From NCBI RefSeq assembly GCF_027943255.1, contig NC_072893.1:3100001-3164000 (forward strand): 64,000 nt of DNA. Reading direction: 5' to 3'. The notes under the pieces were generated by a model. The model ran no database searches. It worked only from the letters and a program-made list of their open reading frames with translations, and was not told the DNA's origin. The first letter of the stretch is position 1. Every line of letters begins with the position of its first letter. The DNA comes from Anastrepha obliqua. Lineage: Eukaryota > Arthropoda > Insecta > Diptera > Tephritidae. A program made the translations under genes and the position numbers. This document shows positions 19,401 through 61,866 of this stretch, in pieces.

Positions 19401-22400
19401 ATTCGCTGAGCGCAAAGTAACGGGACCACGATGGGCGCCATCTCATTATTCTTTGCATCATGAGGGGTGCTCATCTAAATGCCTAAATTTACGAAACCCT
19501 GAAATATAAATATTTACCTACACCCTCTGTTTTATGAATAACTTCCAGAAATATTTCTGTAATAAATTTGGCACTTAAACTTACATAATTTGTGTAAATC
19601 ACCTTTCATATAAATATCGACAGCGGTTTTCTGAGGTTGTTTAAGTGCTTGGGATTTAAGCGTTTAGATGAATATCCTTATCATACTATTAAAAGTGTTC
19701 AGTGGCACAAGGTGCATACATGGTGAACAAATTTTTAGAGGTGTGGACTCTCAGAAGATCAGACCGTTAACCGACTTTCAGCGAATTTAAAAGAATCAGC
19801 TTATGGGCTGACATCACATTGATCATGACAACGGTTTGTTTACGAAACAATTGATATTATGTTGCTGATATACGAAAAAATAACACAGTCGACGCTTACG
19901 TTGCTTCGTTGACAACTGCACAACGAATGTGAATCTGTGTGAAATGGGCGGAGAATTCTGCTGTTGAGTCCCATGTGACGTGTCAGCTGAAGGTATTCGT
20001 ACAATTTGGTTTTTCACATTAGCTGATGGCCAAACCTGGTAATCTATCATCCTTGATAAGCATATGAAACTTTATCGCTCCCTGTGCCACGCTTTAAGTG
20101 TTGAGTAATTTCGGATAAGCTCATCTATCATAACTTACATATTTTGAAAAGAATTACTTGAGGCCTATTCTTTTCTCCAAGCGTTAGCAACTGGCGAATA
20201 GATGAAGCAACTGGTATAAATGAACACATCTTGGCAGCACTGGAATAGAGCTGCTTAAAATTACATTTGTTTGTGAGGTAGTGAGTAATACCAGTTTTAT
20301 GAGTTATAACCGTACTCGCTAGCGGGGAATCTTACTCTATAACTTTGTTGTTGCTTTCACATGGAGATTTTTCGTCAAGTTAATCAAGCATAAAAATAAC
20401 GAGCGGGCAAGTGGCGCATAGAAGAGGTTTTTGCTATTGAAGGCAGGTTGTTAGTAAAAAATATCTGTAACTTTCTTTCTGTTGTGGATATGAAAGTGGG
20501 AATAAATGAATAATTTGCGATAAATATTTACGAAAAGATTGCCAAAGTTACAAAGGATTTTTCTCAGTTGTACATAATTTTTTTGGTGTATTTAAAATTT
20601 TTTGCTTTTATTAAGGGGGGAGCCTGGTTTATAAGGTAAAAAAATCAATTTTTTTTTTCGTTTTAAGCGATTCCTAATATATTTCAGAATATTCACACAA
20701 AGCTACAGAGCCTAATTCTCAATATTCCCGTAGATATAAAGCCAAAGGTAGGCGAGCGTTAGGTAGTTACGCTGTGACCGGACAGCTATAGTACAAACTT
20801 TATCTTCTTTTCTCGACTTTTCATTTTTATGATTTCTTTGAATTGGCGTACATGAATGAAAAAAAACTAATGAACCTTTTGAAATAAATCATAGCTTGTT
20901 ACCTTCAGTATTAAATTCTCTTCTATTTGAACTAACAAAATATATAAAAAAAATTTTTCAAGATTTTTATACCAAGTTGAAGTGAATTTTTTTTTTATAG
21001 AAAGTCATTTTTTTCTTGAAAACCTCCAAAAAGTCCAAATTTGGGAATTTCTCTCAGTTTTCTTAGTTCATCTAGAATAAAAAATCATGATTATTACGAG
21101 CTGTATCTTCTCCGCTAGTTGGAAACTCAAGCGTTGCAGCGCTCTACTAATTTCTATGTTAAACATTATTTCAACTTATTTTAACCAGTACAAAAATTTT
21201 TTATACTTTTTAAATGTCCATTAAAAGATAGAAAAAACTTTGCAGTGCTAAATTAATTTTTTCCTTAAAAAAAAAATCGCAAAGAGATGCAATTTTTAGA
21301 CTTCATAATCCAGGCTCCCCCCTTAATTTTTCATTTATGCTTTTCCCTTCTTAAAATGTATTAAATCCGGCAGTTCTTTCGTTGGGACCAAACCCGCGTA
21401 CTGTTACACAAAAAATCACACAATGTAAATCCGGCTGTCATAATGGGTGGGTTGCAACTGTTGCGGCAAACCATTTGACTGATGTGTTGCCAGAATGAAA
21501 GTATTGCTGCATGTAAAAAACAGATGTTATTAAAACAAATATTATATTTCGTTGTGTATAAAAAGTTTTTTGCCGGTTGTGAAATATATTATAACATTAA
21601 TGGTTATTGAAACGAAAGAGGGTTTTAATAGAATTTATGATAGTCGTAGACGGTTAGTGCGACCATGCATCGATAGAACTTCGCGCGATACAAAATTGTT
21701 ATTCTTTAAAAAGATGTCATGTTCGCCGCACTTGCCGTACGGCAAAGTTGTAAGTTTTTGTGCATTTCGACATGACGTATGGCAATTTGTACCGAATTTG
21801 TCTCAAATACACATAATCTATTTTGCTGACAGTCGAATTCGTTGCCGCAACGGGCCCATTGTGACGGCTCTATTACTCACACCGACATTGGTCACATATG
21901 GAAACAGCACAGATTTATCATACATATGAATACATGTATGAATATATGTATGTATGTATGTATGGATATGCACACTTACTGCTTTTTAGATATATCCAAA
22001 GGTTGATCGATGTTCGGGCGGCAGAGTCCAAAATACTACCCCGCATAGATATAACACAGATGCCAGATTCAACGCAAACGGAGCCTTCGTTGCGATATCC
22101 AACATGTACAAAAATTGGTAGAAATTATTTTAAGCAAATCGTATATCCACATGAATACTTACAAAATAATATTATCAAATAACAGATCTGCAGAGCGAAA
22201 AGTAACTTCAAGTTTAGAATCGCAAGGTTGTATTCGAAGACCAATAATGACAGCAACACTATTACAAAACTTTATAAAAAAGCAAAAATGTTAAAGTTCA
22301 GTTACTCATTTAACTAAATGTGTATGCATATATCTTACCAAATAAGATGCGTAGTCAACAAAAAAGCTCCTGGTACTACGAGATCATCTGAGCCTACTGA

Positions 22401-22433
22401 CCAGCGCCGTCTAAACACGACGAGTCCAGGCAT
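5376..22433 (-). CDS. inaE: sn-1-specific diacylglycerol lipase (DAGL-alpha orthologue), multi-exon
   Basis: The product hydrolyses diacylglycerol at the sn-1 position to give monoacylglycerol; in flies inaE acts in photoreceptor phototransduction. Coding exons read on the minus strand: 22433-22339, 22269-22163, 17785-17684, 17615-17438, 16391-16172, 13634-13435, 13370-12843, 12783-12642, 12578-12474, 12408-12340, 12262-12204, then 9055-8938 spliced to 7409-5376 (long form), or 9055-8881 (short form). Phases close at every junction. The protein opens MPGLVVFRRRWSVGSDDL, as in animal DAGLs, followed by four hydrophobic segments within about the first 130 residues. The catalytic core has GHSLGAG (Ser444), LGKDVVPRIG (Asp496) and PLYPPGRIIH (His592). 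The Ser-Asp spacing of 52 equals that of human DAGLA as I recall it. Predicted lengths are 1,318 (long) and 659 (short) residues. The start is fixed because an AG acceptor lies directly before the ATG, so the 5' UTR must come from an upstream exon. Confidence 0.93.
8292..8314. repeat. (TATG)n microsatellite in inaE intron
   Basis: Five to six tandem ATGT units. Similar (TATG)n tracts occur near 21,940, 30,620, 40,100 and 57,835. Confidence 0.9.
8485..8490 (-). terminator. candidate poly(A) signal for the short inaE isoform
   Basis: AATAAA on the minus strand about 390 nt downstream of the TAG at 8883-8881. Position and orientation fit 3'-end formation for the read-through isoform. AT-rich DNA makes chance matches common. 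Confidence 0.35.
8881..9055 (-). CDS. inaE: inaE alternative terminal exon (short isoform) / internal exon (long isoform)
   Basis: After the acceptor at 9056 the exon reads HEPVYQAIWADTYDFDEVLI and SPVMLQDHMPDKVLAALKK. At AAG|GTAATT (8938/8937) it can be spliced to the acceptor at 7410. Read through, it adds VIAGATDGSNTSLCSTES and stops at TAG 8883-8881. Drosophila inaE is known to make short and long isoforms with different C-termini, and this structure would produce both. An AATAAA on the minus strand at 8490-8485 fits a polyadenylation site for the short form. Confidence 0.8.
10059..10848 (+). mobile_element. internally deleted mariner copy 1
   Basis: Terminal repeats GGTTGTTCAATAAGTTTTG at the left and its complement at 10822-10845. 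A frameshifted transposase reads WVPHSQQWNKS in one frame and NLVHRFITMNETWIYQHDPK in the next. The first catalytic Asp is Asn (MNETW). After TINLLDQLMGKK about 300 bp carrying the second and third catalytic Asp are missing compared with the copy at 48,857-50,169. It lies in an inaE intron. Confidence 0.85.
10984..11007. repeat. (TTA)n microsatellite
   Basis: Eight ATT/TTA units in the inaE intron. Confidence 0.85.
11300..11598 (-). mobile_element. SINE copy, same family, nearly full length
   Basis: Reads from tail (AATTGGCGCGTAGGC) through GTTTGCCATTGCCTGCCGAG to the head complement (GCTATTCGGCTACGACGGCC). Oriented opposite to the inaE-independent copies at 1289 and 50595. It lies in an inaE intron. 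Confidence 0.8.
12204..12783 (-). CDS. inaE: inaE exons 8-11 (catalytic Asp and His)
   Basis: Exons 12783-12642, 12578-12474, 12408-12340 and 12262-12204. The first holds SFITSVVLGKDVVPRIGLHQ (Asp496). The second and third encode a Cys-rich then polar stretch, equivalent to the regulatory loop of DAGLA but shorter: 96 residues between Asp and His. The last holds PLYPPGRIIHIVRHHPKPE (His592). The GTAGGA donor of 12578-12474 is weak, and alternative splicing around the loop exons is possible. Confidence 0.85.
12843..13370 (-). CDS. inaE: inaE catalytic lipase exon (GHSLGAG)
   Basis: This 528-bp exon begins with a Cys-rich segment (CFTCCCRPQTD), typical of palmitoylated stretches in DAGL-alpha, and carries the class-3 lipase core: VVSIRGTLSMKDILTDL, then GLVLVGHSLGAGTAAILAIL with the nucleophilic Ser444, then FSYSPPGGLLS. 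The preceding exon 13634-13435 carries NYDFFQTIIHYMHFAQGAYGWP. The next exon, 12783-12642, supplies the catalytic Asp496. Confidence 0.92.
13906..14017 (+). mobile_element. 3'-end fragment of a non-LTR retrotransposon with target duplication
   Basis: A 110-bp piece ending AACCTAACCTAAC is flanked by TTTCGTCGAAT on both sides (about 13895-13905 and 14019-14029). The direct repeat and 5' truncation are typical of target-primed reverse transcription. It sits in the left part of a Tc1-like element and duplicates its sequence AATATAATTAG.CCTTTCGTC. Confidence 0.55.
14030..14960 (-). pseudogene. Tc1-like transposase remnant
   Basis: Minus-strand fragments: KSGVNVSKDMIRSRLREEDL KLRS (14861-14661), then PWILQEDNDPKHRNGRCEER and NGIKMLEWLT (about 14420-14284). 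The D-N-D-P-K-H motif is the second catalytic Asp of Tc1 transposases. Frameshifts separate the pieces. It lies in the inaE intron between exons 5 and 6. Confidence 0.75.
15099..15547. mobile_element. 449-bp MITE with TA target duplication
   Basis: Perfect terminal inverted repeats of at least 23 bp starting CAGTAGGTTCTGTTTTTATG, flanked by TA (15097-15098 and 15548-15549). No coding capacity. The interior contains two diverged direct repeats of about 80 bp (with ACTATAGATACGTT and CGCATAAA) and several further CGCATAAA motifs, derived from the end of the TIR itself. Confidence 0.88.
15764..15965 (+). mobile_element. candidate second SINE-like family
   Basis: A block with a B-box-like AGGTTCAAACCCCACTCCGG and upstream tRNA-like sequence, then a body with ACCACACATTGGAGGAGAATC. 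Its body differs from the main SINE family. No clear target duplication. Confidence 0.3.
16172..16391 (-). CDS. inaE: inaE exon 5 (pre-lipase cytosolic domain)
   Basis: Reads RKVMRAYQDSWDHRCRLLFC, CMGGTDRNRNSFTDIARLLS, DFFRELDVVPSDVVAGLVLL. The segment ARLLSDFFRELDVVPSDVVAGL is a hallmark conserved block before the catalytic domain of DAGLs. The exon ends on a complete codon (CAG|GTAATT) and joins the exon ending at 13634 in frame. Confidence 0.88.
16521..17404 (+). mobile_element. mariner-like element with nested SINE
   Basis: Terminal repeats CAGGGTGGGCCATCCAACGT at left and complement of CAGTGTGCGCCACCTAACGT at right, flanked by TA. Broken plus-strand coding remnant (EMSPFTLQQ and later NREIF-like pieces) without intact catalytic motifs. 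A SINE is inserted at 16998-17286. It lies in the inaE intron between exons 4 and 5. Confidence 0.75.
16998..17286 (+). mobile_element. SINE copy nested in mariner-like element
   Basis: Target duplication ATAATTAATCG (16987-16997) and ATAATTAACCG (17287-17297), one mismatch. Head TTGTAGCCGAATGGCTTGAG; body GGAGTCGGCTTAAAGCTGTA. More diverged from the other copies, perhaps an older subfamily. Confidence 0.75.
17438..17785 (-). CDS. inaE: inaE exons 3-4 (membrane helices 3-4 and cytoplasmic linker)
   Basis: Exon 17785-17684 reads LVIFFDITWLVLGTIWLTNYYFDAP... and ends ATGG|GTAATT. Exon 17615-17438 begins ATVICNWALVFITLITIWCTFD and runs into a basic linker with RSWVKMKKYQRSMRE. Both are hydrophobic then basic, as expected for the third and fourth DAGL helices followed by the cytosolic region. 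The exons are separated by a short 68-bp intron. They lie just 5' of a mariner-like element (16,521-17,404) in the next intron. Confidence 0.85.
18267..19462. mobile_element. 1.2-kb DNA element with 9-bp target duplication (P- or hAT-like ends)
   Basis: AGGGGTGCT is repeated directly at 18258-18266 and 19463-19471. Ends are inverted and imperfect: CAAGAATGATAG...GCGCCCATC at left and, complemented, CATGATGCAAAGAATAATGA then GCGCCCATCGTGGTCCCGT at right. CA termini, an 8-9 bp duplication and the right-end CATGATG...GTGGTCCCGT resemble the P superfamily. There is no transposase inside; the interior is AT-rich with no long frame. It lies in the large inaE intron 2. Confidence 0.55.
20615..21322. 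mobile_element. TTAA-flanked MITE no. 1 (708 bp)
   Basis: TTAA at 20611-20614 and 21323-21326. Perfect 13-bp terminal inverted repeat GGGGGGAGCCTGG. AT-rich interior with long T and A tracts and no coding sequence. It lies in inaE intron 2. Confidence 0.88.
22163..22433 (-). CDS. inaE: inaE first two coding exons (N-terminal membrane region)
   Basis: Exon 22433-22339 encodes the conserved cytoplasmic N-terminus (MPGLVVFRRRWSVGSDDLVV) and the start of the first membrane helix. It ends in a GTAAGA donor. Exon 22269-22163 encodes the rest of helix 1 and helix 2 (hydrophobic run FVIVLLSLLVFEYN, then ALQICYLIILF) and ends in GTAAGT. The acceptor TTGCTTTCAG touches the ATG, so there is no 5' UTR in this exon. 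A 1.9-kb inverted-repeat element begins only about 77 bp upstream of the start codon, within the preceding intron. Confidence 0.88.
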
Positions 22434-22509
22434 CTGAAAGCAAAAATTAATGATTTAAATTAAATTAAACTGTGAAAGCTGTACAATTGCCGAATGGCAA
22501 GTAAAATTA

Positions 22510-24409
22510 CACTGTGCGACAGTGTTTTTATACTTTTATGGAGACCTAGTACAACTTGTAGGTATAGTAAAACTAAGAAAAATGGTATAGGAGAAATTTG
22601 GAAATACACCCCCAAAATCTCGATTTATGGCCATAAAACCGTTTTTCAGTAGGTTGATGTGAAGAATCACTTCTAACTTCGCCAATTTCCATCCGATTTC
22701 AAATTTGTTTTTTTAGTTCGAAAGAAAAAAAACAAGACTTTTTGACAGTGTGTTGACAATTTTTCTGAAATGACAACTGACGAGACTGTAGGCGGAAGTA
22801 TTTGGAATTTTTTTATTTTTTCTCTATTTTTTCAACTTTGACATAATTTTTACGATATTATCCGATATTGAGGATTTTTTTTAGTACACTACTGTTATAG
22901 TAAATTTGATTTTGCGCCGAATGAGCTATATTTGACTGTACTTGATTTAAAATTAATAGAGTTGTGTGAGTTTTAAGATTTCATTTTTTTTTTACTAATT
23001 TGGTATGAAGGTATAACTTTACGCTAAATGGGAATAAGGACGTGGAACTGGTTAGAACTTACGAAAATATCTGACATATTATAGCACATTTTTTTTCAAT
23101 GAAAATATGAAAAAGCACCCAAGTGTACCTAAGTTCATACTGTACATTGATTAACAAAAGAAGTTTGTTAGTATAATTTAACCTTATTAAAAAGTTAAAG
23201 TTTTATTGTTTGTTTCATTGATATTCAAGAGACAGAAATCAAAACGTTGCCAGAAAAGTCGAATTTCTCAATATTCTCCGATGATGTGGCATCATCATCC
23301 TTATCATAAACCAGATGATTGTTATTTTTATAAAACGGACGTAAACGGTCATCATTATAAAGCTCGAAAGCATATAAAGTATGCTGATGTTGCAACTGTT
23401 AAGAACCCCGTAGTCTTGGATGATATGATTGACTCAACTGCAGGAACTGAAGGAAGTTCAACTCATTGCTGATGACGATCAAACTGATAACAATAAACCT
23501 GATGATGAAGCATACTTTCTGTCTGGTTCTAAGTCTTCAGAACGACACATTGTATCAAATTCAGATTTTCAGGACCTTTCTCGTGATTTACTTCTATCGG
23601 GAAGACAATCTGAAACGCTCGCTTCTCGATTTAAACAATGGAATTTAGTTGATGACGACTTCAGATGAATGATGATGGTCGAATTTCTTACAGAGAAGTA
23701 TTCAAAACTGATGAAGAGAATGACAAATGTACCGTACCATACTAAACTCCAAAGGGCTGTTTCCAATGCATTTTTTAGTTTGGAACCAGTTCCGTTGTGT
23801 ACTGCACCGTACCATACCATACAGTGCTGCACTGCACAATACTCCAATAAATATTATGTGTTTATAATGACACTTGTTATCATTTTCATGCTTCGAAACG
23901 CATACCAAATTAGTAAAAAAAAAAAAAAATCTTAAAACTCATACAACTCTATTATATTAATTTTAATTCAATTACAGTCAAATATAGCTCATTCGACGCA
24001 AAATTAAATTTACTATAACAGTAGTGTACTAAAAAAAATCCTTAATATCGGATAATATCGTAAAAATTATGTCAAAGTTGAAAAAATAGAGAAAAAATAA
24101 AAAAAATCCAAATACTTCCGCCTACAGTCTCGTCAGTTGTCATTTCAGAAAAATTGTCAACACACTGTGAAAAAGTCTTGTTTTTTTTCTTTCGAACTTA
24201 AAAAACAAATTTGAAATCGGATGGAAATTGGCGAAGTTAGGAGTGATTCTTCACATCAACCTACTGAAAAACGGTTTTATGGCCATAAAATGAGATTTTG
24301 GGGGTGTATTGGAAATTTCTCCTATACCATTTTGTTTAGTTTTTCTACAGCCACAAGTTGTGCTAGGTCTCCATAAAAGTATATTTAATTTTTTTTTTGT
24401 CACACAGTG
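22510..24409. mobile_element. 1.9-kb long-inverted-repeat element
   Basis: Left arm 22510-23007 and right arm 24409-23901 are inverted copies, about 500 bp each with few differences (for example TATTTGACTGTA / TACAGTCAAATA). Ends are CACTGTGCGACA and complement of CACTGTGTGACA. It is flanked by TTA at 22507-22509 and 24410-24412. The 0.9-kb centre carries a decayed gene fragment (23206-23740). A 3-bp TTA duplication occurs in PIF/Harbinger and CACTA-like groups, but I cannot assign the superfamily. Confidence 0.85.
23206..23746 (+). pseudogene. decayed gene fragment inside the inverted-repeat element
   Basis: Plus-strand pieces: MWHHHPYHKPDDCYFYKTDV NGHHYKARKHIKYADV, then FQDLSRDLLLSGRQSETLAS RFKQWNL, then GRISYREVFKTDEENDK after a frameshift. 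Together they resemble the N-terminal third of a large uncharacterised insect/cnidarian multi-copy family with W-x-E...DDCYFC...YP, and LN-D-L-x-R-D-L-x-L-S-K-x-x-x-E-x-L-x-S-R-L. The family assignment is from memory. The usual second Cys of CYFC is Tyr here. The rest of the protein is absent. Confidence 0.45.
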
Positions 24410-24412
24410 TTA

Positions 24413-25760
24413 TTCAACAAACACGATTATATTTACAGTATAATTAAGTAGTTCTAAAAATCCCACATTAAAAATTAAGTTTGCTAGAAATAATGCTGCA
24501 TCTACTTCTTGACTGCCACACTCAGAAATAATCGTAGTGAAAGAAACGACTTAGAGCAAAGGTATGGCAGCGAAAATATTTATTAGGATGAAAAAAAGGC
24601 TTAGCATTTTTACTATATTTACTACTAACAAAGAACGTAGATATGAACGTTCAAATTAGAAACAAAGCGGCCGTAGGACTGAAACGATCAAGAATACTTT
24701 TTAAAACAATGTATTTGTAACCTGCAGTGTAGATACGTTATTTTCGACCAGCATGAAAGCAACAACTCCGACTGAGTTACAGAAAAAAATTTTGAATTAG
24801 ATACCCACTTTTCATCAAGATTTCTCAGAAATTACCGTAGATACCTACAGCAACTGTGAAAATTGAAAACATCAATAACTTTATAATTATTTATAATTTC
24901 AAAACTCTTTTTACATGAATAAATTCGTATTTTAAGATACCCACATTTAAAATCAAATTTAGCGAAAGGGATGTGCCGATAATAATAATCATCATGCCAA
25001 ACAAATGGCATAAAGGGAAGGGCTGACGTTCTATTAAACGAGTTTTTAATTTTTCCAACAAGCGGAGCCAATGTGGCGTAACTTTGAGTAACTGCAACTG
25101 TTTTCTCCGAACCCTGCAATTTCCAATCAGAAATTTTAATTTTACTCCGACACTTTGCTTAGATGGACTTTGACTTTTTGCACATTTAACTAGTCATACC
25201 TCAGGCAGCTTTAGAAGATAAATGGCTATTTATAAGTAATATGCATATCATTACGATCAGACGATATTAAAAAATGATTTTAACTGTACTAAATGCATCG
25301 CAAATAAAATGAACGTGTAAAAGTTATACGGCATTCAAACCAGTTTTGGTTTTAGCGCAGACTTTACGCAAAGGGCATAATCGGTATCTGTAGAGCATGA
25401 TTTCACCATGCACGCGGGTATTGCGTTCCGTTAATATTACAGTTGCACCTTCATTGCAAACCTTAAGTTTAGAATGTACGAGTATATAACTAAAAGTTGG
25501 CTTATTGAAGACAGGCAGGCAACCATTCAAGTTTGCGTGACGGAGTGCGCTTGAACTTAATAATTAATAATTCGCCGCTGCAGTTGGGGCGGAAGGAATC
25601 AATACCTTCTTTCGATTCGCCAACCATTTAGCAATTCGCGAATAAAACAAGTAAGGGAGACGAAATTCAGTTCGGACCAAACTTTGTATATACGCGCAGA
25701 TTTGAATAAAACTTAATTTGGGTTGGTTGTTAATTTTTGGAATCAAACAAACTCATAGAA
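24413..25760. other. intergenic stretch upstream of inaE, no gene found
   Basis: AT-rich, with stops in all frames. Short frames on the minus strand at 24832-25119 and 25324-25530 show no recognisable domain. Confidence 0.4.
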
Positions 25761-26639
25761 ATCTTCACTATTTTACTGAGCTGGGTACCAGGACATGAAG
25801 GTCATGATAGCTAGATTCCATGAATCAGAAATCGAAGAACGTGGAATTCATACGACACTGAATGGAAAGTCCGTGACAGAGGCAGGCAAAGCGTATAGTA
25901 CCGATAGAGAGACCTTACGAACTCTCACTGGATACTAAACGGTGCATTGCAGTCTTTATTATCTGGGTGATAAAACAAAAAGGCCATTCCCTAAGAATAT
26001 GTAGCTTCCGCAAGACAAAGACTCACTAAATAAGTGTATCTATCTCGATTCCTTTATGCTATTGCATGCAACTGTTATGTGAACAAAATTATAATACCCT
26101 TGGGTACAGGTGCGCGGGTATACTCGTAACAACAAATGAAGTTGCTGGTTGCATATGTATTTGGCAGCACTGATGTATTTGGTTTATAGCTGGCGAGGAA
26201 AAGAGTTGTGGAGAACCTCAGAGCGATCATGCAAAATGAACAAAATAAAATATATACATACAGTAAATATTTATAATAAATTTAGTAAATTATTGGAAGT
26301 ACTGATCAAAAAAAGTTGCGTGCGAGCTAAGCAGCTATAAACGAACTCGCTTCAGGTCGATTCCAATCACTTCTACTTGATGTTAAGTTTGTTGTTGCTT
26401 TCTCATACAAACTCTATGCTAAGGGAACAGATCAGATATTAAGTGAGTAAATAAGTGGCGAATTGAAATGGACAATGGGTTATTGTATAATAAGAAAACA
26501 ACAGCGTTGCGGAAGAGGGCTCCCGTCTGAGTTATTGAAAAATAGTGGTGCTAACTCTTATGCAGGATATAGTTGGGCGAATATTATACTGGGGCAAGGC
26601 ACACCACCCTAATCCACATGAAATTTCATTCCTTGCATG

Positions 26640-27225
26640 AAAATATAGGGTGGTTCAATGGTGATGCATATCTTTGACAGCAATTAATTGTAATATGGTA
26701 ATTTTTTTCAAACTGGCAAACTTTGTCATGGAGCGTTTTATAAAAATTTCGTGATAAGCGATAAGGCACATTTTCCCTTAAATGATGTATACGTTAACTA
26801 GCAAAACTGCCGGATTTAGGGTACAGAAAATCCAAATGTCATTCAAGAAAAAAGTATACGCATGGTATAGTTTTCAGGTTGATAGAATCATCGGACCGTA
26901 GGTATTTCGTCGAAAATGATAACTCTTTTACTGTGAACGATGAACGATATCATTATTATGATAACAAATTTTTTAGGATCTGAAGTAGATAACATGGACT
27001 TCTATAATGTGCGGGCGGTGCCCCTTGTCTCACAGCGCATGAAACAATTGTCTTTTTGCGTATGGAGCTCCCAGGACTCATTATCTCACCAAACAACGAG
27101 GTCAAATGGCCGTCGATATTTACGGTTTGACCACAACGAACTTCTGGTCTGAAGAACAGAAACATACACATTATAAATGATATATAGGTTGCACAGGAAT
27201 GCCGGGCAGCTCTAAATGATATTAG
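26640..27225 (+). pseudogene. mariner-like transposase remnant
   Basis: Plus-strand pieces in shifting frames: CRI-GTENPNVIQEKS, then FTVNDERYHYYDNKF, then AGGAPCLTAHETIVFLRMEL PGLIISPNNEVKWPS. These match the order WGTENP, TVNGxRYR, QQDGAxCHTAxET, of a Tc1/mariner-group transposase. Many stops. The same protein family appears at 33250-33441. Confidence 0.65.
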
Positions 27226-27232
27226 TGACGTA

Positions 27233-33849: not shown

Positions 33850-34576
33850 GGGGGGAAGCTGGTCTAGAGCGCAAAAAATGGGCATATTTTATGAATTTAT
33901 TTTGACTCAACAAAGGAATCAATCGAAAATCTGTGAAATAGGTTTAATAATATAGCTTTCATGGTACAAATACAAAATTTTTCGTCTGAATTAATTTCAA
34001 AATGGCCGCTGTCCAGCAGTTCTCCTAAGGCGCCTTTTTTTCTAGTGGGTCCATTGCCGAAGACGTAAACTCCTTAATTTTTGTCCTGGATCAAAAAATA
34101 AAATTTTTTTAGTTTCTATATAACAACAGAAAGAAACGTACGTAGGATTTTTTCGATATTTTGTTTTTTCGCGAAATGGTGCACGTTTGAACAAAAAGTT
34201 ACAATTTTCACTATAAAGAACGACATAAAATTGTTGATTAAAAAAAAACTATGTAATATAAATAAAAAATCCTACGTACGTCTCCGGAGAAAGGTATTTC
34301 CAATGTATTGTCAAAATTTCGTAAGAATCGGTAAAGATTTGTTCGAGTTATGTCTTCGGCCAGTTTAAAAAAAGTGATTTCGAGAAAAACGCGCTTAAAG
34401 TTGTAAATAGCGTTCGGGGCATACCTGCGAGGCACTGCCGTCGAATGAAAAATTTGGGTATTTAGACATTTTTGCTGGCATCCCTCATTTGGTATATTAT
34501 TTCTAAGGCCCTAAAGCACCTTTTAAGACAAAAAAAATTTTTCGATTTTTTCGAAATTCTAGACCACCTTCCCCCC
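33850..34576. mobile_element. TTAA-flanked MITE no. 2 (727 bp)
   Basis: TTAA at 33846-33849 and 34577-34580. Terminal repeats GGGGGGAAGCTGGTCTAGA and, complemented, GGGGGGAAGGTGGTCTAGA (one mismatch). It is inserted exactly in the 3' tail of the Jockey-like element that follows. An internal stretch TTTAAAAAAAGTGATTTCGA then GAAAAACGCG has a counterpart in MITE no. 4. Confidence 0.88.
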
Positions 34577-46000: not shown

Positions 46001-49000
46001 GGAAAGTGCAAGATCTTATTATTTTGCAAATTCAATAGATTTATAAATTGTTTAAGGATTTACCGCATGCAGACCGTCCAGACACATCGCATATAATGCC
46101 TCTCCATTTGTTTTGTTTGTCTTTGTCTTGACACGTAGTGTACGTTTAGACAAGGCCATCAATTTATTTGAGTTACTACACGATAAATCACCTAGACCCG
46201 AGCTCAAAACTATAACCATCGAATCCCAGCAGCAAGTCAAAAGTCGCCGGCAAAGTTTCTTTGCAGCCTCGCGTCGTTTGTTGTCCCGTTCGTCGGTGTA
46301 CTTTATATTTGCCATTTGTAACCGTTGCCACTCAGAAAGCATCTGGGTGGGTCCCAAGCCACCTGCGTCACAAAGCATATCCACCAGGGCACTTCGTGAA
46401 TTGGTACCTTCCAGTTCCTCCCTGCTCATCGCTTCTAAGCCATTCGAAACCAATATTGACTGATATAATTCACAGAGCCAAGGAGATGAAAGGTACACTA
46501 AAACACCAGTGTTCTGGACAGATGTAACGAACTGCTGTTCCGACATAGGAATTAATATCTCTTTCTGCATGTCTTCATAATATCCAGCCTTTGTAAGTTG
46601 CAGACTGAGCAGTAACGATGAATAAATCGCCAAGTAAATGCCGTCAGCATTGATGGCCGTAAGGTGATAATCGAAATCGGAGAAGTTCATTGTGTTTTCT
46701 TGGCATACGACTGAGGCGAATTCTTGCATGGCCTCGTCTACCTCAATGCAGGAGCGTATACGTAACAGCTTCGGTACCAAATCTTTTCGCAATGCCTTTG
46801 CAAAATCTCGGGCATGTTGTCGATCATTGTCAATATCGGTGCGTACTGGTATGACTGGGGCCTCAAGGTGGGTGTAGGGCCATCTGTTTTCTACACGTGA
46901 CGTTTCATCACTCGATGTTGATTGCTCCTCCTCTTCAGGCCCCTCTGTATCACCTGAACCATTTGAAGCTGCATCGTGTTCTGGATGATCGCCATCACTG
47001 TCTGAACCTGAAGAGGTTTCAAAAACGCTTTGACGAAACTCTACAATCGCATCGCGATAAGGAGCAGGCAGCCGCGCCATCGATTGATAAGTTAATGGGC
47101 CCGTGTAATCGGCATCCTTTAATGTTTCGTGACGACTGTTGACGGTGCTCACAATCTACAGACAAACACATAAGTAAACGGACGACAATTCTCCTGTTAA
47201 TTTATGTTGTTTAGTTACATATTTATTATGATTACCTGATCGCTAATCATTGATTCAGTTAGTTCGCCGCTGCAAAGAATTTGCAAACTATCCAGTAGTG
47301 CCACCATGCACTCCACGCTGGCCTGAAGGCCTGCCTCAACTCCGGCACCTGCACTAATGCCATAAGCGCATTCTTCCATTGCATCGATCATACTGAAATT
47401 ACGTGCAAATATTTTGCATATGAATGGATATGCGCTCATGATATAACCATTTAAAACTTACAGTCGAAATAATGCCATTTCATCACTGCAACCTTGGCCA
47501 GTATTTTTATCAACGTAAAGAATAACCGCCAGATCGATCAAACGCTCTGGACTCTTCAGAATTTCTCGAACACATTTCAATGGCTCAGTACGATTTTGCG
47601 GTGTTGGCAGCAAAAGCATGCGATGAAAAAGTGCCTCCAGCATAGGTCGCAACGAGCCATAGGCTCCTGCAATCCGCAGCAATTGGATTCCAGTCAAGTA
47701 CACGCAACGAGCTTGTGGACCATCTAGGCCAGGGCCAGTAAAAAAGCCACGAGCTTCGTTTTCAATCATATTCAGCGCATCTCTGTTGAAATTTCATATT
47801 TATTTATTAAAGCTATAGGCGTATTGGTACATAAATATAAGTCCCACTTACTTATAAGTGAATTTTTTATCCAAATTAATGCGGCCTGGCGATCCCAATG
47901 CTGCTGCAAGAGTAGGACAGAATTTCTGCCACAAGAATGATGTGAAATGGGGATTTGCATGGACATTTCGGGGCAAAGCCGAAGTCAGTGTTAAAATGCA
48001 TTCTGTTAAATAAAGCGAGCAATTATTCTCAGGCTTTTTGTTGGGTGAACCATTCGCCGCCGGCTCTACTAAACGACTGCATAGCCACTGCATTACCGGA
48101 ATCACTTCATTGTACACTGCCGATGCCTGTGTCTGTGTCATTAGACCAGGCGGTGCAGTCTTCTTCACCTCTTCTGCTTCTTCTATAAGAAAGGCGCAAA
48201 AAGTGCGCAAGCATTGTGATGCTGCTGCCAGTGAGGCGGCTTTGGTGGCACGTGAGCCCAATTCCCAACACTCGCCACAGCGTGAAAGTGTCTCGATGAG
48301 AAGCCGGCCATTTAAAGTGCACGCAGGGGAACAAGCCATAGCCAAAAACAAGCGTAAAACATTGATTACGGTCTCTTCACTGCTAGTTGTGGGTAAAATC
48401 CCATTTGTGGCGCGCAACAACTGAGCGGGCAACCACACTGAGTCATCCTCCGGTTCCAGGCCGATGTAAAAACGTTCATCCTTGATAATGCGCTACACAC
48501 AAAGCAATGAAAACCGATTAAATATCTACTTTCACAGAAATATTATACATAACTAAATAAATGCAAAAGCACAAAATTAGTTTTTAATAATTGAAAAAAA
48601 AAAACCGCCTAAAACTATTGGATATTATGAATCGAAATTATTTTCCAGAAGCAAATAAGAGTTATTCTATGGTTCAAGTACACGAATAGAATCGAAAAAA
48701 ATGCTTAGAGCTTCCAAACATCGTATCACCTGCTAAATTAAGCAAAATTGTCAAGACCAAGCTCCAAGAAAGCGAGCCTAAATATAAAAATCGGATTTAG
48801 GTGAAGTGCACATCGAAATGCAGATAAGTATATTTAATTACGCCATTGTTCTACTAGCCTAATTTGTTTTTTATTTTTGTTATGTTGGTACACTCTTTCA
48901 ACTTATCAACTTTTGTGAAGTTTCATTTCAATCTGATCAAAGGCAATTAGTACCGACGTGTCACAATACTTTCTACAATGGAAAACTGCGTCCAAAAACA

Positions 49001-54527: not shown

Positions 54528-55735
54528 GTCGCGTATAGCCCGTCAGCCACGTCGCTTATTGTTTGATTCGAATTATAGTACTTTTCCTGTTGCCGAAGCT
54601 TTATGCTTAATAGGGTATTATGCTTGCTATTTTTGTGTTTTTGGTTTTTTTGTTTTTGTAGTAACTATATTTGCAGCATATGTATTATATGTATGCATGT
54701 ATGTGCAAATACATACTGCACTAAATGCTTCCTTTGATGTCGATGTGAGCACTACTATTGTCTGCGTAGGGTTTTATCCTGTTTCGCTTCGCTGATTGCC
54801 ATTCAAGTAGAGCTACAACATAAAGAAAATATAATCTTACGTGCTTCAAATATGCATACATATGTAAGTACTTAAGTATATATGTATGTACATAAATTCG
54901 TGTGTGTAAAATCAATAATACAACAGATGCTTTTGATGCACTTTCAAGGATATCATTTCGCATCAATTGAAGAGAAAATTGCTTTTGTTTTCATCCTTAC
55001 TATGAACTTCTTTATTTGTGACCTTACGATGTACAACAATAAACAAAATTCACATAAATGACCCACGTCTTTGCTAACTTAAAAATGTATGTAGATCCTG
55101 TAGTTACATCTCCGATTGAAGTAAATTTGTAATATTTAATATTGATTTTTCTTGTTAAACTTAATTCGATTTTGTTTAATTGATAACAACTGTTTTCAAA
55201 TGGGAATACTCAAATAAAAGTGTGTGTATCCCATTTCACAGACAGTCGAGACTTTTTGGGTATATTATAAAATGCACTGCTCTCACTTCCATCACTGCGC
55301 GAATTATTATATTAACTTTTTACCAAGATTCGTTGTTGATTTTCTAATGAAATTTTATCCAACCTAAGTCGGGAAGAAAGTCAAGCGTTTCTCGTCATCT
55401 TGACAAAGTTGTTTTGCTGGTTTGACCTCTACTATTCACAAATAGCCAAATTGGCTTCAAACGTTGTTTCTAAAGGCAATCGGAAACAAAACTGACTCTC
55501 ACTACTGCACATGAATGATGTTAGTCACTCGATACGTTCTCTATCGAGCCTTTTACAATCAAAATATTAGCCAAGGCGCATGTCCGGGCATCCATCACTT
55601 TGGCGACCAGCGATTGGATGTTTTGCTTAATGTTTCTGCTGCTCGACTGGAAAAATCGATACTGTCTGTTGCTGGTAGCCGCTTACCGTCATTCATGCAC
55701 ATATAATATACACTTACCTACAAAGTACGTACATA
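54528..55735. other. intergenic stretch upstream of the ARFGEF3-like gene, no gene found
   Basis: Likely holds the promoter and 5' UTR of the minus-strand gene. I see no convincing TATA or initiator. Contains short ATGT repeats near 54690 and 54885. Confidence 0.35.
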
Positions 55736-57586
55736 CAGCCGTGGAAAAATACTTAAGAACGATGCGTTGGAAACCTTATATGCGCATATTTTATCGAGCA
55801 CGATCCCGTAATGGTACTTTTTGCACTGGAATATATTTGCAATGATCACATTCATTGAAATGCGTTCATTTATCTATTTCTGTTGAAGGGTTCGCATTGA
55901 TTTTTTGGCGTTTTAGTAGGAGCACTGATATTTTTGTGAGAAACTTACTTAAGAACGATTTGGTCTTTGTCCAAAATTTTGTAAAAACCAAGCTCTTCAT
56001 AGAGTTGCAAAACACCGGATTATCCTACAGTGCTATTTCAACATCATTAAACTTTTCAGAAACCATGGTTTTTAAGGGGGTAGTATGGTATTTTTTTTTT
56101 TTCATTTTTTTTTTAAATTATTCTATAACATCTTAAGATTATTGTGTGAAAGTTTGAAGTGCATTAGAGTAAAATTGACAAAGACACAAAGGATTAAGTA
56201 TCTACCTCTCCAACCGGATTTCACGCTTCACAAATCTTTAAACGCGTTTTTCTCACACTTGCCTTTTTTACGGTCGGTGTCCACTGTAGATTCATATCTA
56301 CTGCACCGATTCTTTTCAAATTTGGTTTTTTTGTTTCTTTACTTTATTCACGAGGTAATGACCTCGAGTTTTTTTTTTTTTTAAATTTTGTCATATTTTA
56401 AAACAACAAAGTTTTCAAGTTTTTTTTATGAAAAATCGGTGTTTTGACTTCAAAGCGCTTTAAAAAATTAAAAAAAAAAAAAAAAAAAAAAAAATTCGAC
56501 GTTGTGACCTGCGAAACTTTATTAGCTGATGAAATCAATTTGGTTTTTTGATTTTAGTTGATCCAGTAATGAGTTCTGAGGGACACCGCAATAAAACTTT
56601 TTTATGAGACGTCCGCGAAGATTCGCTGCCACCAACTCATTTCTTCATAAAAATCAATGAAAATTTCACACAATATTCTTTAAATATGACTTTATAATGA
56701 AGTAATTTTAAAATTTTGAATAAATCAACTGTGTCGACAAAAAAAATTTCGAAAAATATGCTTGTTTTACACCGAATTAACCATACTACCCCCTTAATGC
56801 TCTGAAATATTTTTCTGCTCATAAAATTGCAGAAAACGTTCCCAGAAAAAAGAGGCACGAACGACTACTAGCCAGACTGATAGAATGATCTTTGATTGTC
56901 AAAACAGGATCGCAGGAAGGGGCGAAAAGAACAGTAGCGCTTTGATTTGCTGAAGCAGGGCTTTACGGTCGACTGGCACGGAAGAAGCTATTGGTAGCAG
57001 CATCGCAATAACCAAGCCGAATTGAGTTTGCCCGAGAGCACATATCCTCGACTCAAAATCAGTAGCGTTATATTTTATTCAGCGATGAAACAAAAATAAA
57101 TAATAAAGTTGGTCCAGGCGATAGGGAGTTGTACGGTGACCAAAATGTACCAAGTTCATCTCTCCAATCATAAAGCTCGGGGGAGGCTCAATAATAGTGT
57201 GTGGCTGCTTTTCGTGGAACGGCGTCGGGCCAATTCATCGCATTGAAGCTAATATGAAAGTGAACAGGTACGTTCAGTTACTTCAAAGCGTAATGCCACC
57301 ATATGCGGAAGAGAATTTACCGGTGATTTGGAAATTGCAACAAGACAATGATCCGAAGCACACTTTTCGTGTGGCAAAAAAGTATTTCGAAGACTTTTCG
57401 ATCACTGTTCTGGATTGGGCATCTTCGAGTGCCGACTTAAATCCACTAGAACATCTTTAAAACGACGTAAAAATTAACTCAGTACACAGGTTGAAAACAT
57501 TTTTAATTTATAAAATAAAAACTTATATGCAAATCATTTAAGTGAGAGAGAACTGGGTATCGTTCCTAAGTATTTTTCAACGGCTG
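55736..57586 (+). mobile_element. Tc1-like element with nested TTAA MITE
   Basis: Terminal repeats CAGCCGTGGAAAAATACTTA at left and complement of CAGCCGTTGAAAAATACTTA at right, flanked by TA. Plus-strand transposase remnant: VKTKLFIELQNTGLSYSAIS before the nested element, and MCGCFSWNGVGPIHRIEANM, QQDNDPKHTFRVAKKYFEDF, WASSSADLNPLEHL at 57197-57460. D-N-D-P-K-H and the S-x-D-L-N-P-x-E-H motif mark the second and third catalytic sites. Earlier parts are broken by frameshifts. Confidence 0.88.
56076..56793. mobile_element. TTAA-flanked MITE no. 3 (718 bp), nested in Tc1
   Basis: TTAA at 56072-56075 and 56794-56797. Perfect 13-bp terminal inverted repeat GGGGGTAGTATGG. The interior has long T and A homopolymers. 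Removing it rejoins the Tc1 sequence at a single TTAA. Confidence 0.9.
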
Positions 57587-57589
57587 TAT

Positions 57590-59515
57590 GGTGCATCCTG
57601 TCATGATTTCCCAGGTTTGTTTGCTTGATTGTCAACGAAAATAATGCGTGATTTCGACAGTTTTATCGCTAAAATACTTCCTTGGTAGTTCGTCACTCAA
57701 TGCAGCTATCCACTAATCCTTGAAAGCACATACAAATGTATGAGTGCATATATGCCCTCGTAAGGTCACGTGCTTTCTTGGGCCTCTTAAAACACGCATA
57801 TTGATGTTATCTGTCATGTGTAGTGTGTACATACATATGTATGTATATGGCAAATACATAAATACATGATATTTAATCCTTATGAAGTGCCTTATGCCTT
57901 ATTACCCTGCTCGTTATTTTTTGTATGCATAAAGGCGTGTACGTGAAAACGGCTCCAGCGCCAGCTATTTATTTATTTGTAATATAAGAATGTTCGTATG
58001 AGTAAATGCACAAGTATCAACTGTAGTGTTCTCGTTTAGAAAATCCCTCAATACTCCAACAGGTGGTTTTATCACAAAAGAAAAATGCATCTTTTTCATC
58101 ACCTATTTATAATGTGTGTGCATATATCTAACCTTCTCATCCACATACATACGAGTATGCCCATATATGCCAGAGATATTCATTTCAAGCTCGTGATTTT
58201 TATGATTTATTTTTCGGTTAAGAATTTATATTTTCGGCTTACCTACATATGAATGGCCATTAGCCGGATAGGCTGACAAACAATTCTAAACAAATACCTC
58301 TACTAAAAATTTACTATTATTATAAACTAATAGAAATTGAATACCGAAGTCCAAAAGAAGATTAGCGTCGACACCCTATGGATGGTGTATAGAGATTAGT
58401 CAGTGAAACCTAGCGTTTTTTATGGAGATCGCACTCGAGAAGAGGCGGAGGTAAGCCTTGGTACTGGCTTTGAATATGTCTCATCAAATATTGATGACAG
58501 CGATCCCGACGCACAATTGGAGTTAGATTCTTCATAAAATATAGATTTTCAGTCTGAACCTGGTGGGTCTGCAAGGGCAACATTAAGTATTTGGAATAAC
58601 ACAAGGAACATGCTAATATATTATATATAAATAGGCAAACATGTTTTCTTTACATCCCTTTTACTCATAAACTATTCATATTTCTAAGGTATAAAGAATT
58701 AAATATATTTTGATGTAGAAGGCAAAAAAATTCACACAAAAATAGTTACAAATGCTAGAACCTGTATATATGGGATGACTCCTAAATGTATGCTTTAATA
58801 TTATACTGACTGAAAAGGCAGGGGTTAAGGAATAAAATTTGGGTAATGATTAATACAAGAACAAAGTAATGATGAATATATAGCTGAAGAAAAGCACAAA
58901 GCCGAAGATAAAAATAAAAATAGAGATGCGTACAGATAAAATAGTGAAGATTAAGATAGGGACAAAAATTCAACCAAAAAGGTAAATAAAAGGAAAAGGA
59001 TGGAAATAGTGAAAAAGAAGGGGATAAAGATAAGGAAACAAAGAAGAGGTAAAACTGAGTTCTATAATTTTTGCTCAATTTCTGGGCTATGGAATAAGTC
59101 TCACATACCGCTCCGGCGATTTTCATGATTTTCTCAACAATTTACCAATTGGCTCACCAGGACGAAATCATAGAATTACCACTTTACTATTGCATTTTCT
59201 CTTTTTACCTTTATTTTGGAACGCCTTAACCCACAACTGACTCCTACAGACCGGTCAAAGAAATTGCTTTGTTGCGAAAGTCACCATCGAATCGCCGTTG
59301 AAGATGACCCTATACAATTTATACGTCATTTGATTTGGCATGCTAAAGATATTAAAAAGACCTTACATTATTAACCTCAAGAAACCACACTACATTATTT
59401 AAATGAATATCAATATGTATGTAAGCAAAAACTAAACAAAAATAAGTAAGTAATAAACATGGGGCGATAATTGGCTTTGTAAACTGATACAAAACCAACA
59501 ACAGCAACAACGACG
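57590..59515. other. intergenic stretch, no gene found
   Basis: AT-rich. A purine-rich run (about 58860-59060, many GATAAAG/GAAAAAG units) gives a low-complexity minus-strand frame that is unlikely to be coding. Confidence 0.4.
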
Positions 59516-59517
59516 CT

Positions 59518-59660
59518 AATTGGTCGTTTCCACGACAGTCGGTTCTCCGTTACCGAAACGACCCAGATTTATATCCGGCCAAGGACTGTCACTCCAGCAG
59601 CATTCACCGTATGTAAGTATGGGGAATGTTTATGCTGCTACAACAACAACGCCAATTGGT
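59518..59660 (+). mobile_element. short retrotransposon 3'-end-like repeat
   Basis: A 130-bp block ending AATGTTTATGCTGCTACAAC and CAACAAC, flanked by AATTGGT at 59518-59524 and 59654-59660. The CAA-type 3' end resembles those of the Jockey-like copies. The flanks are also preceded by CAACAAC, so a tandem duplication is an alternative. Confidence 0.4.
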
Positions 59661-59836
59661 GACGCAGCACACCAGCAATCGGTCTTGGATTCGACCCGCG
59701 CATATTTTGGCATATAATTAAAAAGATGCAGCAACGATTCTTACTTATCTGCTTATCCATAGTATTTTTAAATAGTATAATCCATATTTATAAATATTTC
59801 TACACAACATATTATTAAATATCTTTAAAATTAATG

Positions 59837-59842
59837 TTTATT
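59837..59842 (-). terminator. candidate MCTS1 poly(A) signal
   Basis: AATAAA on the minus strand about 110 nt past the MCTS1 stop codon. Confidence 0.5.
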
Positions 59843-59951
59843 CAATAAGCTAAAGAAATAGATGTATTTTAATACAAAAATCATTTAGACATTTAAATAT
59901 AGCTCTTTCAGACTAGCTATTGCAATCATGCGGATTAATATTTTATGATTT

Positions 59952-60674
59952 TTACTTTATAACTTTCATTTTCCATAGTCCATCATTAAGGTAATGGCAA
60001 TTTTCCACTCCTACGCCCTTGTTAACTTTCGAGCTGTAAAACAAAAACATATAGTTAATAAGAATACAGACCACTAGGCTGTAATTTACATTTCTTCAGT
60101 AGACAAAGTGGTGATGCCAATGGCCAATGCATGTTCTTTGCCTTCGGCCATTATTGCCACAACAGCTCCTTTATCGGAGGGTGTCATTTGTGCGCCAGGC
60201 GACGTAAGGCCGGGACACATTATATTAGCACCACTTAATACAAATCGAATGGCACCCTTATCTACTTGCTGCATAGTTACAAAATATGGAAACTTGTGTA
60301 GTAATCGCAAAGTCGGCATCCACTGACCCTCGCGATGCCGGAAGAACGCTATTTCGCCGCTCCCTGTGACTAAAAGTTCAATATGATCGTGGCTAAAAAG
60401 TAATTAAGAAGTTAAAACCATTTCATTTGTATACAAATAATAGTAACCATTTAGCGATGCGGTACGAATCTTTTTTTGGTAGTATCAAGTCAATGTGTGT
60501 TTCCAACAATGGATACGTTTCCAACAATTTCGCACGGATACCCTTCTGGACAGAAGATTTCAGTTGCTGAAGCGATGAAACACTTTCCTTTTCTTCAAAT
60601 CTGCAATATCGACAATTGAAATAAGTGAATTTTAGGAATGGTCTCATTAAACACTAAACTTACTTTCTAAACAT
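59952..60674 (-). CDS. MCTS1: MCTS1 (MCT-1), PUA-domain translation re-initiation factor
   Basis: MCTS1 pairs with DENR and promotes re-initiation and 40S recycling. Minus-strand exons: 60674-60664 (11 nt, MFRK), 60600-60448, 60392-60090, 60033-59952. The joined protein has 182 residues, about the family length of 181. The N-terminal part is [20 protein letters not shown]. The PUA domain has [40 protein letters not shown] and [17 protein letters not shown]. The C-terminus is [20 protein letters not shown], then KMKVIK. The 11-nt first coding exon is easily missed. The exon-2 donor (TG|GTTACT) is weak, but the frame and protein match are convincing. An AATAAA on the minus strand at 59842-59837 fits the 3' end. 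Confidence 0.95.
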
Positions 60675-61144
60675 TTTGAATTAGTATTAATTATTAAAAT
60701 ATTCACACAATATATGTCTCATGTGTCGTAAAAGCAATGCAAAGAAAAGCAATATAAAGCAACCAACAACAAAACAAAAGCGAACCTTAACTCTGAGTAG
60801 TGGCTGTCAAATCTCATCTGCTAGTTGTCAGTTTCAGTGCTTACACTTTACACTTAGTCCCCACTATATTTTAATATGACTTATAGCATGGTAAGACAGA
60901 TTACCTTCATTGAATGTAATGAGAATGGGATAAGTAAATTCAATCAAACTTATGAAACTCTGTTAGCGGTATTTGATTTGGATTTTAAAATCTATTTAAT
61001 AGACAGATCTCCTAAAACTATTTTAATTTAATAATAGCACGTAACCCTACGAATATGCTGACATATGATCATGAAAATTTTGTATCTCTCGCCGAAATTT
61101 AACAAGATGTGACAATAGTGCGAGAAAAGAAATATCAAGATTAA

Positions 61145-61866
61145 AGGGGAACGCCGCCGTGGGAGGTCAAAAAATAGTAGATTTTTGGGAATTTGTTTTT
61201 GTAAGTAGGAATTATTCGAGGATCGGACAAAAGGCAATTTATTATATGTGTATTAAACTGTGTTGATGTAAATTTTTATTAAAAACTATTGAAAATTGGC
61301 AAATTTATGTAAATAAACGTAACGAGTTAAACAAATGGCGTATTTGGTGGCAGCGATACAGCAATGAATAATTATCTGAACTCCAAAAGCCAAAACTTGT
61401 ATTAATATACACAATAGTGGCTATCGTTGTAAGTAGCCGTTCTTTTTTTTTGACAAAATGTTGGAGACTTGAATTTCGATGTGTGTTTTTCACCATTTTT
61501 TTGATTTTCAACAGGCCCAAAAAAATATATTAGTTATTTTCAAAATTTTGAAAATCGGCTACGTACAACGATAGCCAATGCGATAACAAAAATTTTGAAA
61601 AAAAAAATTAAAATCGGTTCATTAGTCTTCGAGAAATCGTTGCCACCGTATTAAAAAAAGTCGTTTGGAGAAAAACGCGTTTGAAATAAAGCATCGTATC
61701 GAAAGCGCTACGGGGCCGAATCGACGGGCGCTCACTTAAGTGCACATAGAATCGGGAATAACGCGAATATCGCTTTAAAATTTTTACCACATTTTCTTGA
61801 GTAGTTATACTAACAATTTATGCAAAAAAAATCTATTTTTTTTAATTTTTACAGTGACGTTCCCCC
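61145..61866. mobile_element. TTAA-flanked MITE no. 4 (722 bp)
   Basis: TTAA at 61141-61144 and 61867-61870. Terminal repeats AGGGGAACG and, complemented, GGGGGAACG (one mismatch). Interior TATTAAAAAAAGTCGTTTGG and GAAAAACGCGTTTGAAA parallels MITE no. 2. Located between MCTS1 and the ashwin-like gene. Confidence 0.82.

What the first reader, a model, noticed from the sequence alone, without database searches (positions are those of the whole stretch)
20615..61866. A family of four ~720-bp TTAA-flanked elements with G-tract terminal inverted repeats
Elements at 20615-21322, 33850-34576, 56076-56793 and 61145-61866 are all 708-727 bp, all bounded by TTAA on both sides, and all begin with five or six G (one AGGGG) and end with the complement. 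The termini differ in sequence after the G-tract (GGGGGGAGCCTGG, GGGGGGAAGCTGG, GGGGGTAGTATGG, AGGGGAACG), yet size and architecture are constant. This suggests several subfamilies moved by one TTAA-specific (piggyBac-like) transposase. Nos. 2 and 4 share an internal TTTAAAAAAAGT...GAAAAACGCG stretch.
Basis: partly seen in the sequence, partly recalled or inferred. Interest (0 to 1): 0.8.

Follow-up and report, generated by a model that had tools for sequence, protein, structure and literature searches.

The report
Kolobok miniature transposons with measured anatomy
Four 720-letter jumping-gene fragments in a fly genome belong not to the piggyBac group but to the Kolobok group, and families of them with different sequences keep nearly the same length and a folded-back pair of sequences at nearly the same distance from one end, which suggests a hidden ruler that such elements may need in order to move.

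Summary
Observation confirmed: four TTAA-flanked elements with G-tract inverted ends, each multicopy in an 836-Mb fly genome. They are not piggyBac-like. Transposons with a Pfam PF20700 transposase have TTAA-flanked, mostly G-tract ends; two carry an element-3 end, and element 3 is such a transposon with about 2.1 kb, gene included, removed. Ends, target and transposase signatures fit published Kolobok criteria. No autonomous partner was found for elements 1, 2 and 4, but only 36 PF20700 loci were fetched. New: eight miniature families, 721-747 bp, sharing little sequence beyond about 70 bp around one motif, have one plan: a family-specific inverted repeat near the element's midpoint and (seven of eight) an antisense GAGAAAAACGCG motif about 550 bp from one terminus. 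In four full-length relatives stop codon to terminus is 599-603 bp, although these stretches align barely better than shuffled sequence; motif and repeat lie there in a predicted 356-364-bp terminal intron. I infer a long cis-acting transposon end; function is untested.

The parts
20615..21322 (-). E1: miniature Kolobok-type element, 708 bp (family consensus 747 bp), TTAA target duplication, ends GGGGGGAGCCTGG; gene 3' side probably on the left
   Evidence: orientation only from the position of the weak internal inverted repeat; no recognisable motif
20921..20940 (.). E1 internal inverted repeat, arm 1 (weak; 17 of 20 pairs in the consensus)
   Evidence: (p=0.010)
21058..21077 (.). E1 internal inverted repeat, arm 2
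33850..34576 (-). E2: miniature Kolobok-type element, 727 bp, ends GGGGGGAAGCTGGTCTAGA; gene 3' side on the left; the 40 scored copies are 98-100% identical
34133..34153 (.). E2 internal inverted repeat, arm 1
   Evidence: score 21.5; p=0.0033, the floor of 300 resamplings
34264..34284 (.). E2 internal inverted repeat, arm 2
34342..34399 (+). E2 conserved motif (antisense to the lost gene), core GAGAAAAACGCG
56076..56793 (+). E3: miniature Kolobok-type element, 718 bp, ends GGGGGTAGTATGG; internal deletion derivative of the L056/L063 transposon; gene orientation +
56226..56227 (.). E3 deletion junction (2-bp overlap, E3 151-152, between the 5' and 3' parts of the parent)
56237..56270 (-). E3 conserved motif, reads GAGAAAAACGCGTTTAAA on the minus strand
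56353..56368 (.). E3 internal inverted repeat, arm nearer the lost gene (window copy has changes against the consensus)
   Evidence: located by eye from the consensus arms
56495..56510 (.). E3 internal inverted repeat, second arm
   Evidence: located by eye from the consensus arms
61145..61866 (-). E4: miniature Kolobok-type element, 722 bp, ends (A/G)GGGGAACG; gene 3' side on the left
61418..61439 (.). E4 internal inverted repeat, arm 1 (family consensus pairs 28 of 29)
   Evidence: (score 32.5)
61556..61577 (.). E4 internal inverted repeat, arm 2
61628..61685 (+). E4 conserved motif (antisense to the lost gene)

Best explanation
The four elements are miniature (MITE) members of the Kolobok superfamily in a fly genome. 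Each is what remains of a ~2.75-kb Kolobok transposon after deletion of the ~600-codon transposase gene (shown for element 3 and for M94; inferred for 1, 2, 4). Transposases of PF20700 type supplied by intact relatives are inferred to recognise the ends and move the fragments by TTAA-targeted transposition. The families that carry the motif keep ~165-185 bp on the 5' side of it and ~550 bp on the 3' side, up to the motif. I infer that this 3' stretch is a long, asymmetric cis-acting transposon end: terminal repeat, a family-specific internal inverted repeat at nearly fixed distance (~283 bp in), and the motif (~550 bp in) are docking sites for transposase or host factors in the synaptic complex, and shorter deletion products move poorly. 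Shown: ends, target duplication, parentage of E3 and M94, near-constant spacing, pairing of the repeat. Inferred: mobilisation in trans, the cis function, and any role of the predicted terminal intron that houses motif and repeat in the intact gene.
For: Parentage: E3 1-152 = L056 3221-3061 and E3 151-683 = L056 964-472; E3 151-718 matches L063 at 97.9%. A second miniature, M94, is the same kind of derivative of the L055 transposon (aligned blocks of 567 and 172 bp, target site included); both deletions stop about 10 bp before the motif's TTTAAA, at similar distances from both ends. PF20700 elements: TTAA-flanked inverted ends in 16 of 20 loci, an E3-type end in 2 of the other 4. Transposase: D208, CCHC 243-269, D306/308, CxxH 331-334, H/C 419-430, E485, invariant in the 4 aligned, as the Kolobok paper describes. 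Unchosen sample: the first nine exact motif sites listed on contig 1 all lie in such elements, one of them badly decayed. Repeat at the expected place: Fisher p=7e-14 over 12 sets, one clear miss (L072) included, L056 left out as E3's family and L058, L082, L087 for unknown ends; mean score 18.6 in place against 7.6-8.5 with both windows slid, 10 sets; later found in E5, E6, E7. Spacing: motif end 551.5, SD 3.7, 11 families (E1 left out for lack of motif, M94 as L055's copy); stop to terminus 599-603 bp in four families at near-shuffled identity. A shortened E7 form without the repeat makes up 3 of the 40 scored candidates (of 1235), while 33 of the other 37 show both blocks set apart.
Against: The repeat-less 481-513-bp E7 form has three copies at separate places, so the repeat is not strictly needed. 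Insect Kolobok MITEs average ~386 bp in iMITEdb (PMC5199201), so the length rule is not general. Repeat not found in L072 (p=0.17), L058, L082 and the decayed L095; displaced in L056 (centre ~295) and L070 (centre ~331 once its end is set at TTAA); E1, L049, L055 and L081 score near chance maxima and L066 has p=0.053. E1 has no recognisable motif. The arms occur nowhere else in the element, in particular not near the 5' end, unusual for transposase sites. A shared 5'/3' module is clear only in L059 (p=0.01; E4 p=0.03; eight others p>0.1). Motif and repeat also fit a gene-regulatory reading (rival 1). No transposition data; no partner for E1, E2, E4.
Confidence: 0.75

Rival explanations
1. The conserved motif and inverted repeat serve the transposase gene, not transposition: they sit in a terminal intron (donor GTAAG at the stop codon, acceptor TTTCAG ~237 bp from the end) and fold in the pre-mRNA to control splicing or 3'-end formation. 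The miniature elements keep them only because deletions tend to end just upstream.
For: Predicted donor and acceptor in L049, L055, L059 and L066 give introns of 356-364 bp; in L059 splicing removes the stop codon and restores one at once. Pairing kept while letters change is the signature of a hairpin. RNA folding of the region is on average more stable than shuffled (mean z -2.2 sense, -2.5 antisense, 13 families).
Against: No strand preference (sense lower in 7 of 13); G-U pairs tally 4 in sense against 2 in antisense, too few to decide. An intron alone does not explain 599-603 bp from stop to terminus at near-shuffled identity, nor retention in the miniature families. No RNA data; no Rfam match in L059, L066.
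Confidence: 0.3
2. A piggyBac-like transposase moves the four elements.
For: TTAA target; piggyBac-type PF13843 genes are present, 116 rows.
Against: 5'-GG..CC-3' termini (Kolobok RR..YY); E3's ends are on a PF20700 transposon; E2 and E4 share the 3' motif of PF20700 elements. The ends of PF13843 genes were not inspected.
Confidence: 0.04
3. Constant length and spacing are only common descent: one ancestral miniature diversified into all families.
For: Same plan in the families; some 3' modules are alike between families.
Against: E3 and M94 derive separately from their own autonomous families; spacing stays while identity falls near the shuffled level and pairing arms differ, so maintenance is needed even after common descent.
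Confidence: 0.12

Closest known systems
Kolobok superfamily (PMC9587614: passages and section 10 read)
   Same: TTAA target duplication; RR..YY termini; DDE transposase with CxxH and two zinc fingers
   Different: No accessory gene looked for beyond the ~600-aa frames; no long terminal direct repeats as in KolobokP. KolobokP's repeats too have constrained lengths (about 450 or 660 bp), an interesting parallel
T2-MITEs of Xenopus (PMC6004289: passages read)
   Same: Non-autonomous Kolobok elements, TTAA plus AGGRR ends; E4's window copy fits that string
   Different: The passages seen report no fixed length or internal repeat
Kolobok1-Andl of Anopheles darlingi, nearest Kolobok-N1_Dan (PMC6428116: passages read)
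   Same: TTAA, 14-bp ends, 751 bp: nearly the same length in a mosquito
   Different: 47 copies, called degenerated; internal anatomy not described in the passages seen; sequence not compared here
piggyBac and its MITEs
   Same: TTAA target
   Different: Terminal bases and transposase family
P-element internal inverted repeats (recalled, no call)
   Same: Internal inverted repeat inside a DNA transposon
   Different: Recalled as one site near each end; here both arms lie near one end of the full-length element

Membership tests
Kolobok superfamily | TTAA 4-bp target site duplication | tested here: met
   38 of 49 copies with both ends recognisable are TTAA/TTAA, 3 more have identical other quartets; empty sites
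Kolobok superfamily | 5'-RR and YY-3' termini | tested here: met
   Families seen start GG (E4's window copy AG); definition from PMC9587614
Kolobok superfamily | DDE transposase with C/DxxH between second D and E | tested here: met
   C331-H334 invariant in 4 of 4 aligned transposases of related autonomous elements; catalytic residues assigned by pattern, not by structure
Kolobok superfamily | zinc finger between CxxH and E, and (some lineages) CCHC finger after the first D | tested here: met
   H419/C422/C430 (fourth ligand not assigned) and C243/C246/H265/C269 invariant in 4 of 4 against section 10 of PMC9587614
Kolobok superfamily | Phylogenetic placement among known Kolobok transposases | not tested
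   No named Kolobok protein was at hand; Pfam names the domain 'Mutator'
MuDR/Mutator (name of PF20700) | Target duplication of about 9 bp (recalled) | tested here: not met
   4-bp duplications
piggyBac | PF13843 transposase in elements with the same ends | tested here: inconclusive
   E3 and M94 parents carry PF20700 instead; ends of the PF13843 genes were not inspected
piggyBac | Termini other than 5'-RR | tested here: not met
   The four elements start GG or AG; contrast drawn in PMC9587614
MITE | Short, non-coding, multicopy, with parent-derived ends | tested here: met
   E3; E1, E2, E4 multicopy, parent not found

The most novel reading that the evidence does not exclude
Kolobok miniature elements are measured machines: the mobile unit places a paired internal repeat at its middle (281-286 bp from both ends in E3, E6 and E7; within 26 bp of symmetry in all eight), so that the DNA can fold or loop symmetrically when the two ends are brought together. 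The ~730-bp length is set by that geometry, and each family renews the arm sequence while conserving pairing and distance.
Probability: 0.25. Interest if true: 0.85.

Novelty: new variant of a known kind. Interest (0 to 1): 0.6.

Why it matters
It corrects the class of an abundant fly repeat, gives one of the four (and a further family) parent elements, and offers a short motif that occurs 3,425 times exactly against 0 for the reversed control. More important, it suggests that non-coding transposon DNA can keep distances and self-pairing while its letters turn over. That makes the old question of what, beyond terminal repeats, lets one deletion product become a MITE directly testable.

Tried and rejected
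E1 pairs of ends 1.7-2.0 kb apart, first taken for an autonomous E1, are E1 copies holding nested mariner elements (5 of 5 inspected). Reading by eye the first 100 of 722 exact E1 ends (contig 1 up to 89.5 Mb), none lies within 3 kb of a listed PF20700 row, and the shortest left-right pair is about 604 bp. A viral-contig scan for relatives found none. No solved structure matched at E<=1. A general 5'/3' shared module was tested and is not supported overall (pooled 23.9 against 24.0 for the reverse-complement control, 21.9 shuffled). Papers: the motif's letters are in no held paper in this orientation (one unrelated E. coli paper for the complement). Six searches and the passages opened showed nothing on internal inverted repeats or a fixed length in Kolobok MITEs; subscription papers and Repbase were not searchable, and supplements were not opened. 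Species not established: a protein next to the elements is 76% identical to one of Sarcophaga, so a higher fly; a contig-length resemblance to Anastrepha ludens is only a hint. E6 copy number is unknown (its search did not complete).

Full report
OBSERVATION. The four elements exist as described: TTAA on both sides, matched G-tract ends (18, 18, 16, 13 of 20), 708-727 bp, with no comparable pair in 100 resampled windows. All are repeats in the genome. Among the 40 best-scored copies of each, identity to the window copy is 98-100% for E2, mostly 94-98% for E3, mostly 88-94% for E1 and 87-91% for E4; as only the best candidates are scored, these are upper views of age. Of 55 copies inspected, 6 had a decayed end; of the other 49, 41 have identical flanking quartets, 38 of them TTAA and 3 another quartet. 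Of 13 junction-spanning matches to unoccupied host repeats, 6 show a single TTAA, 4 a quartet one base off and 3 neither. The 4 bp is therefore a target duplication.

WHAT MOVES THEM. PF20700 gave 117 rows from 114 scored of 353 candidates. In 16 of the 20 loci fetched with that call, a simple scan found TTAA-flanked inverted ends around the gene, with four end types, three of them G-tracts, element length 2.74-2.80 kb. Two of the other four, L056 and L063, bear an E3 end on one side. E3 aligns to L056 as two blocks flanking a ~2.1-kb gap that holds the gene, and its 3' part to L063 at 97.9%. Four full-length transposases (51, 47 and 49% identical to the first) share residues that the Kolobok literature names: CxxH between the second acidic residue and the glutamate, a finger between them, and a CCHC finger after the first acidic residue. 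Pfam's label for the domain is Mutator, but the target is 4 bp and the termini are RR..YY, as for Kolobok. 1556 relatives were found, best 120 listed; the named ones in the list are insects such as ants, wasps, a moth and Anastrepha. I did not place them on a tree with named Kolobok proteins.

SHARED PLAN. Measured inward from the terminus downstream of the gene (13 rows: seven miniatures, six autonomous families): an acceptor-like TTTCAG or CAG at 235-241 bp (226 in L055/M94; none clear in E1), an inverted repeat centred at 352-367 bp (E1 386.5), a motif ending at 545-557 bp (E1 none), and in the four full-length elements the stop codon at 599-603 bp. E7, fetched later, has motif and repeat in place but no clear acceptor. 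Outside this: L056, with a shortened 3' part (acceptor 206, centre ~295), and L070 (acceptor 212, centre ~331). By contrast the 5' leaders of the four full-length elements, taking the first in-frame ATG, are 385, 417, 414 and 447 bp (arithmetic). Identity of the four 600-bp 3' stretches after pairwise alignment is 0.61-0.64, against 0.55-0.62 with one shuffle per pair, so the distances outlast most of the letters. Between miniature families BLAST found matches of at most about 70 bp, around the motif (E1, E3 and E4 were compared with fewer sequences than E2, E5, E6 and the short E7).

THE INVERTED REPEAT. It was first seen in E1, E2 and E4, then looked for elsewhere. It was found in E3, L049, L055, L059, L066, L089, L081, L088, L070 and L087, E5, E6, and E7, for which the place was expected before the full copy was fetched (19 of 20 paired, p=0.0033). 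The test window was drawn from the first cases, so the Fisher value (7e-14 over 12 sets, L072 included as a miss, L056, L058, L082, L087 left out) is not free of selection for those; the later families are. Not found: L072, L058, L082, L095; displaced in L056 and L070. In the eight elements scanned no further good copy of an arm was seen. Folding shows no preferred strand.

MINIATURE FAMILIES. Eight are now known here: E1-E4 from the window; M94, E5, E6, E7 from loci (M94 and E6 seen as one copy each). Lengths (consensus or one copy) are 747, 729, 721, 728, 737, 722, 728 for E1, E2, E3, E4, E5, M94, E6 (mean 730, SD 9) and 727 for E7. The repeat is nearly central: 3' and 5' flanks 308/283, 283/293, 283/281, 277/290, 283/300, 272/290, 283/286 in that order and 281/284. 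The first nine motif sites listed on contig 1 were taken in order: three E2, one E3, one M94, three E5, one decayed E4-like. In E3 and M94 the deletion removes part of the leader, the gene and the splice donor and stops about 10 bp short of the motif's TTTAAA. A shortened E7 form of 481-513 bp, with the repeat deleted and the motif kept, accounts for 3 of the 40 scored candidates: mobile perhaps, but rare. A scan of 326 kb of held sequence for TTAA/RR-ended elements of 80-1300 bp found, besides the query copies, 8 elements, of which 494 (the short E7) and 530 bp (a fold-back) were the only ones under 700 bp; scans with three other quartets gave 4-11 chance pairs, so single finds in it mean little.

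HOW IT MOST LIKELY WORKS. Shown: internal deletion (E3, M94), TTAA duplication, near-constant spacing, pairing. Inferred: PF20700 enzymes act in trans; the 3' ~550 bp is a long functional end, needed for efficient transposition, in which repeat and motif have fixed places relative to the terminus; products that lose more are poor substrates, hence one length. The alternative, RNA-level control of the terminal intron, is real competition, since motif and repeat are inside that predicted intron; both may hold.

NOVELTY. Kolobok, Kolobok MITEs and a 751-bp Kolobok element in a mosquito are known. The motif, the centred family-specific repeat and the rigid spacing were not found in print by the searches listed. 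iMITEdb's mean of ~386 bp for insect Kolobok MITEs warns that the rule may be lineage-specific.

Noticed in passing
L073-L077: E1 copies with mariner-like elements nested inside (5 of 5 long E1 pairs inspected).
   Followed up: yes
L063:3257-3998: A fold-back-like repeat with inverted arms of about 125 bp or more, next to the E3-type transposon.
   Followed up: no
window:745-1335 and 10365-10781: Reading frames that look like mariner transposase fragments (by eye).
   Followed up: no
window:40446-48492: Exons that look like a brefeldin A-inhibited guanine nucleotide-exchange protein 3 gene; only the frame 46052-47155 was searched.
   Followed up: partly
G000, genome-wide: piggyBac-type PF13843 genes are numerous (116 rows; 5733 first-look candidates) and many listed frames are open; their ends were not looked at.
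   Followed up: no
L049-L054: PF20700 elements with GGCATCTGGCCACCCT ends and nearly equal scores on three chromosomes (C2, C4, C5), suggesting recent movement.
   Followed up: no
L059:141-868: Miniature family E6 (728 bp, one copy seen) lying 14 bp from a GGGGTTATATCCAC-type autonomous element.
   Followed up: partly
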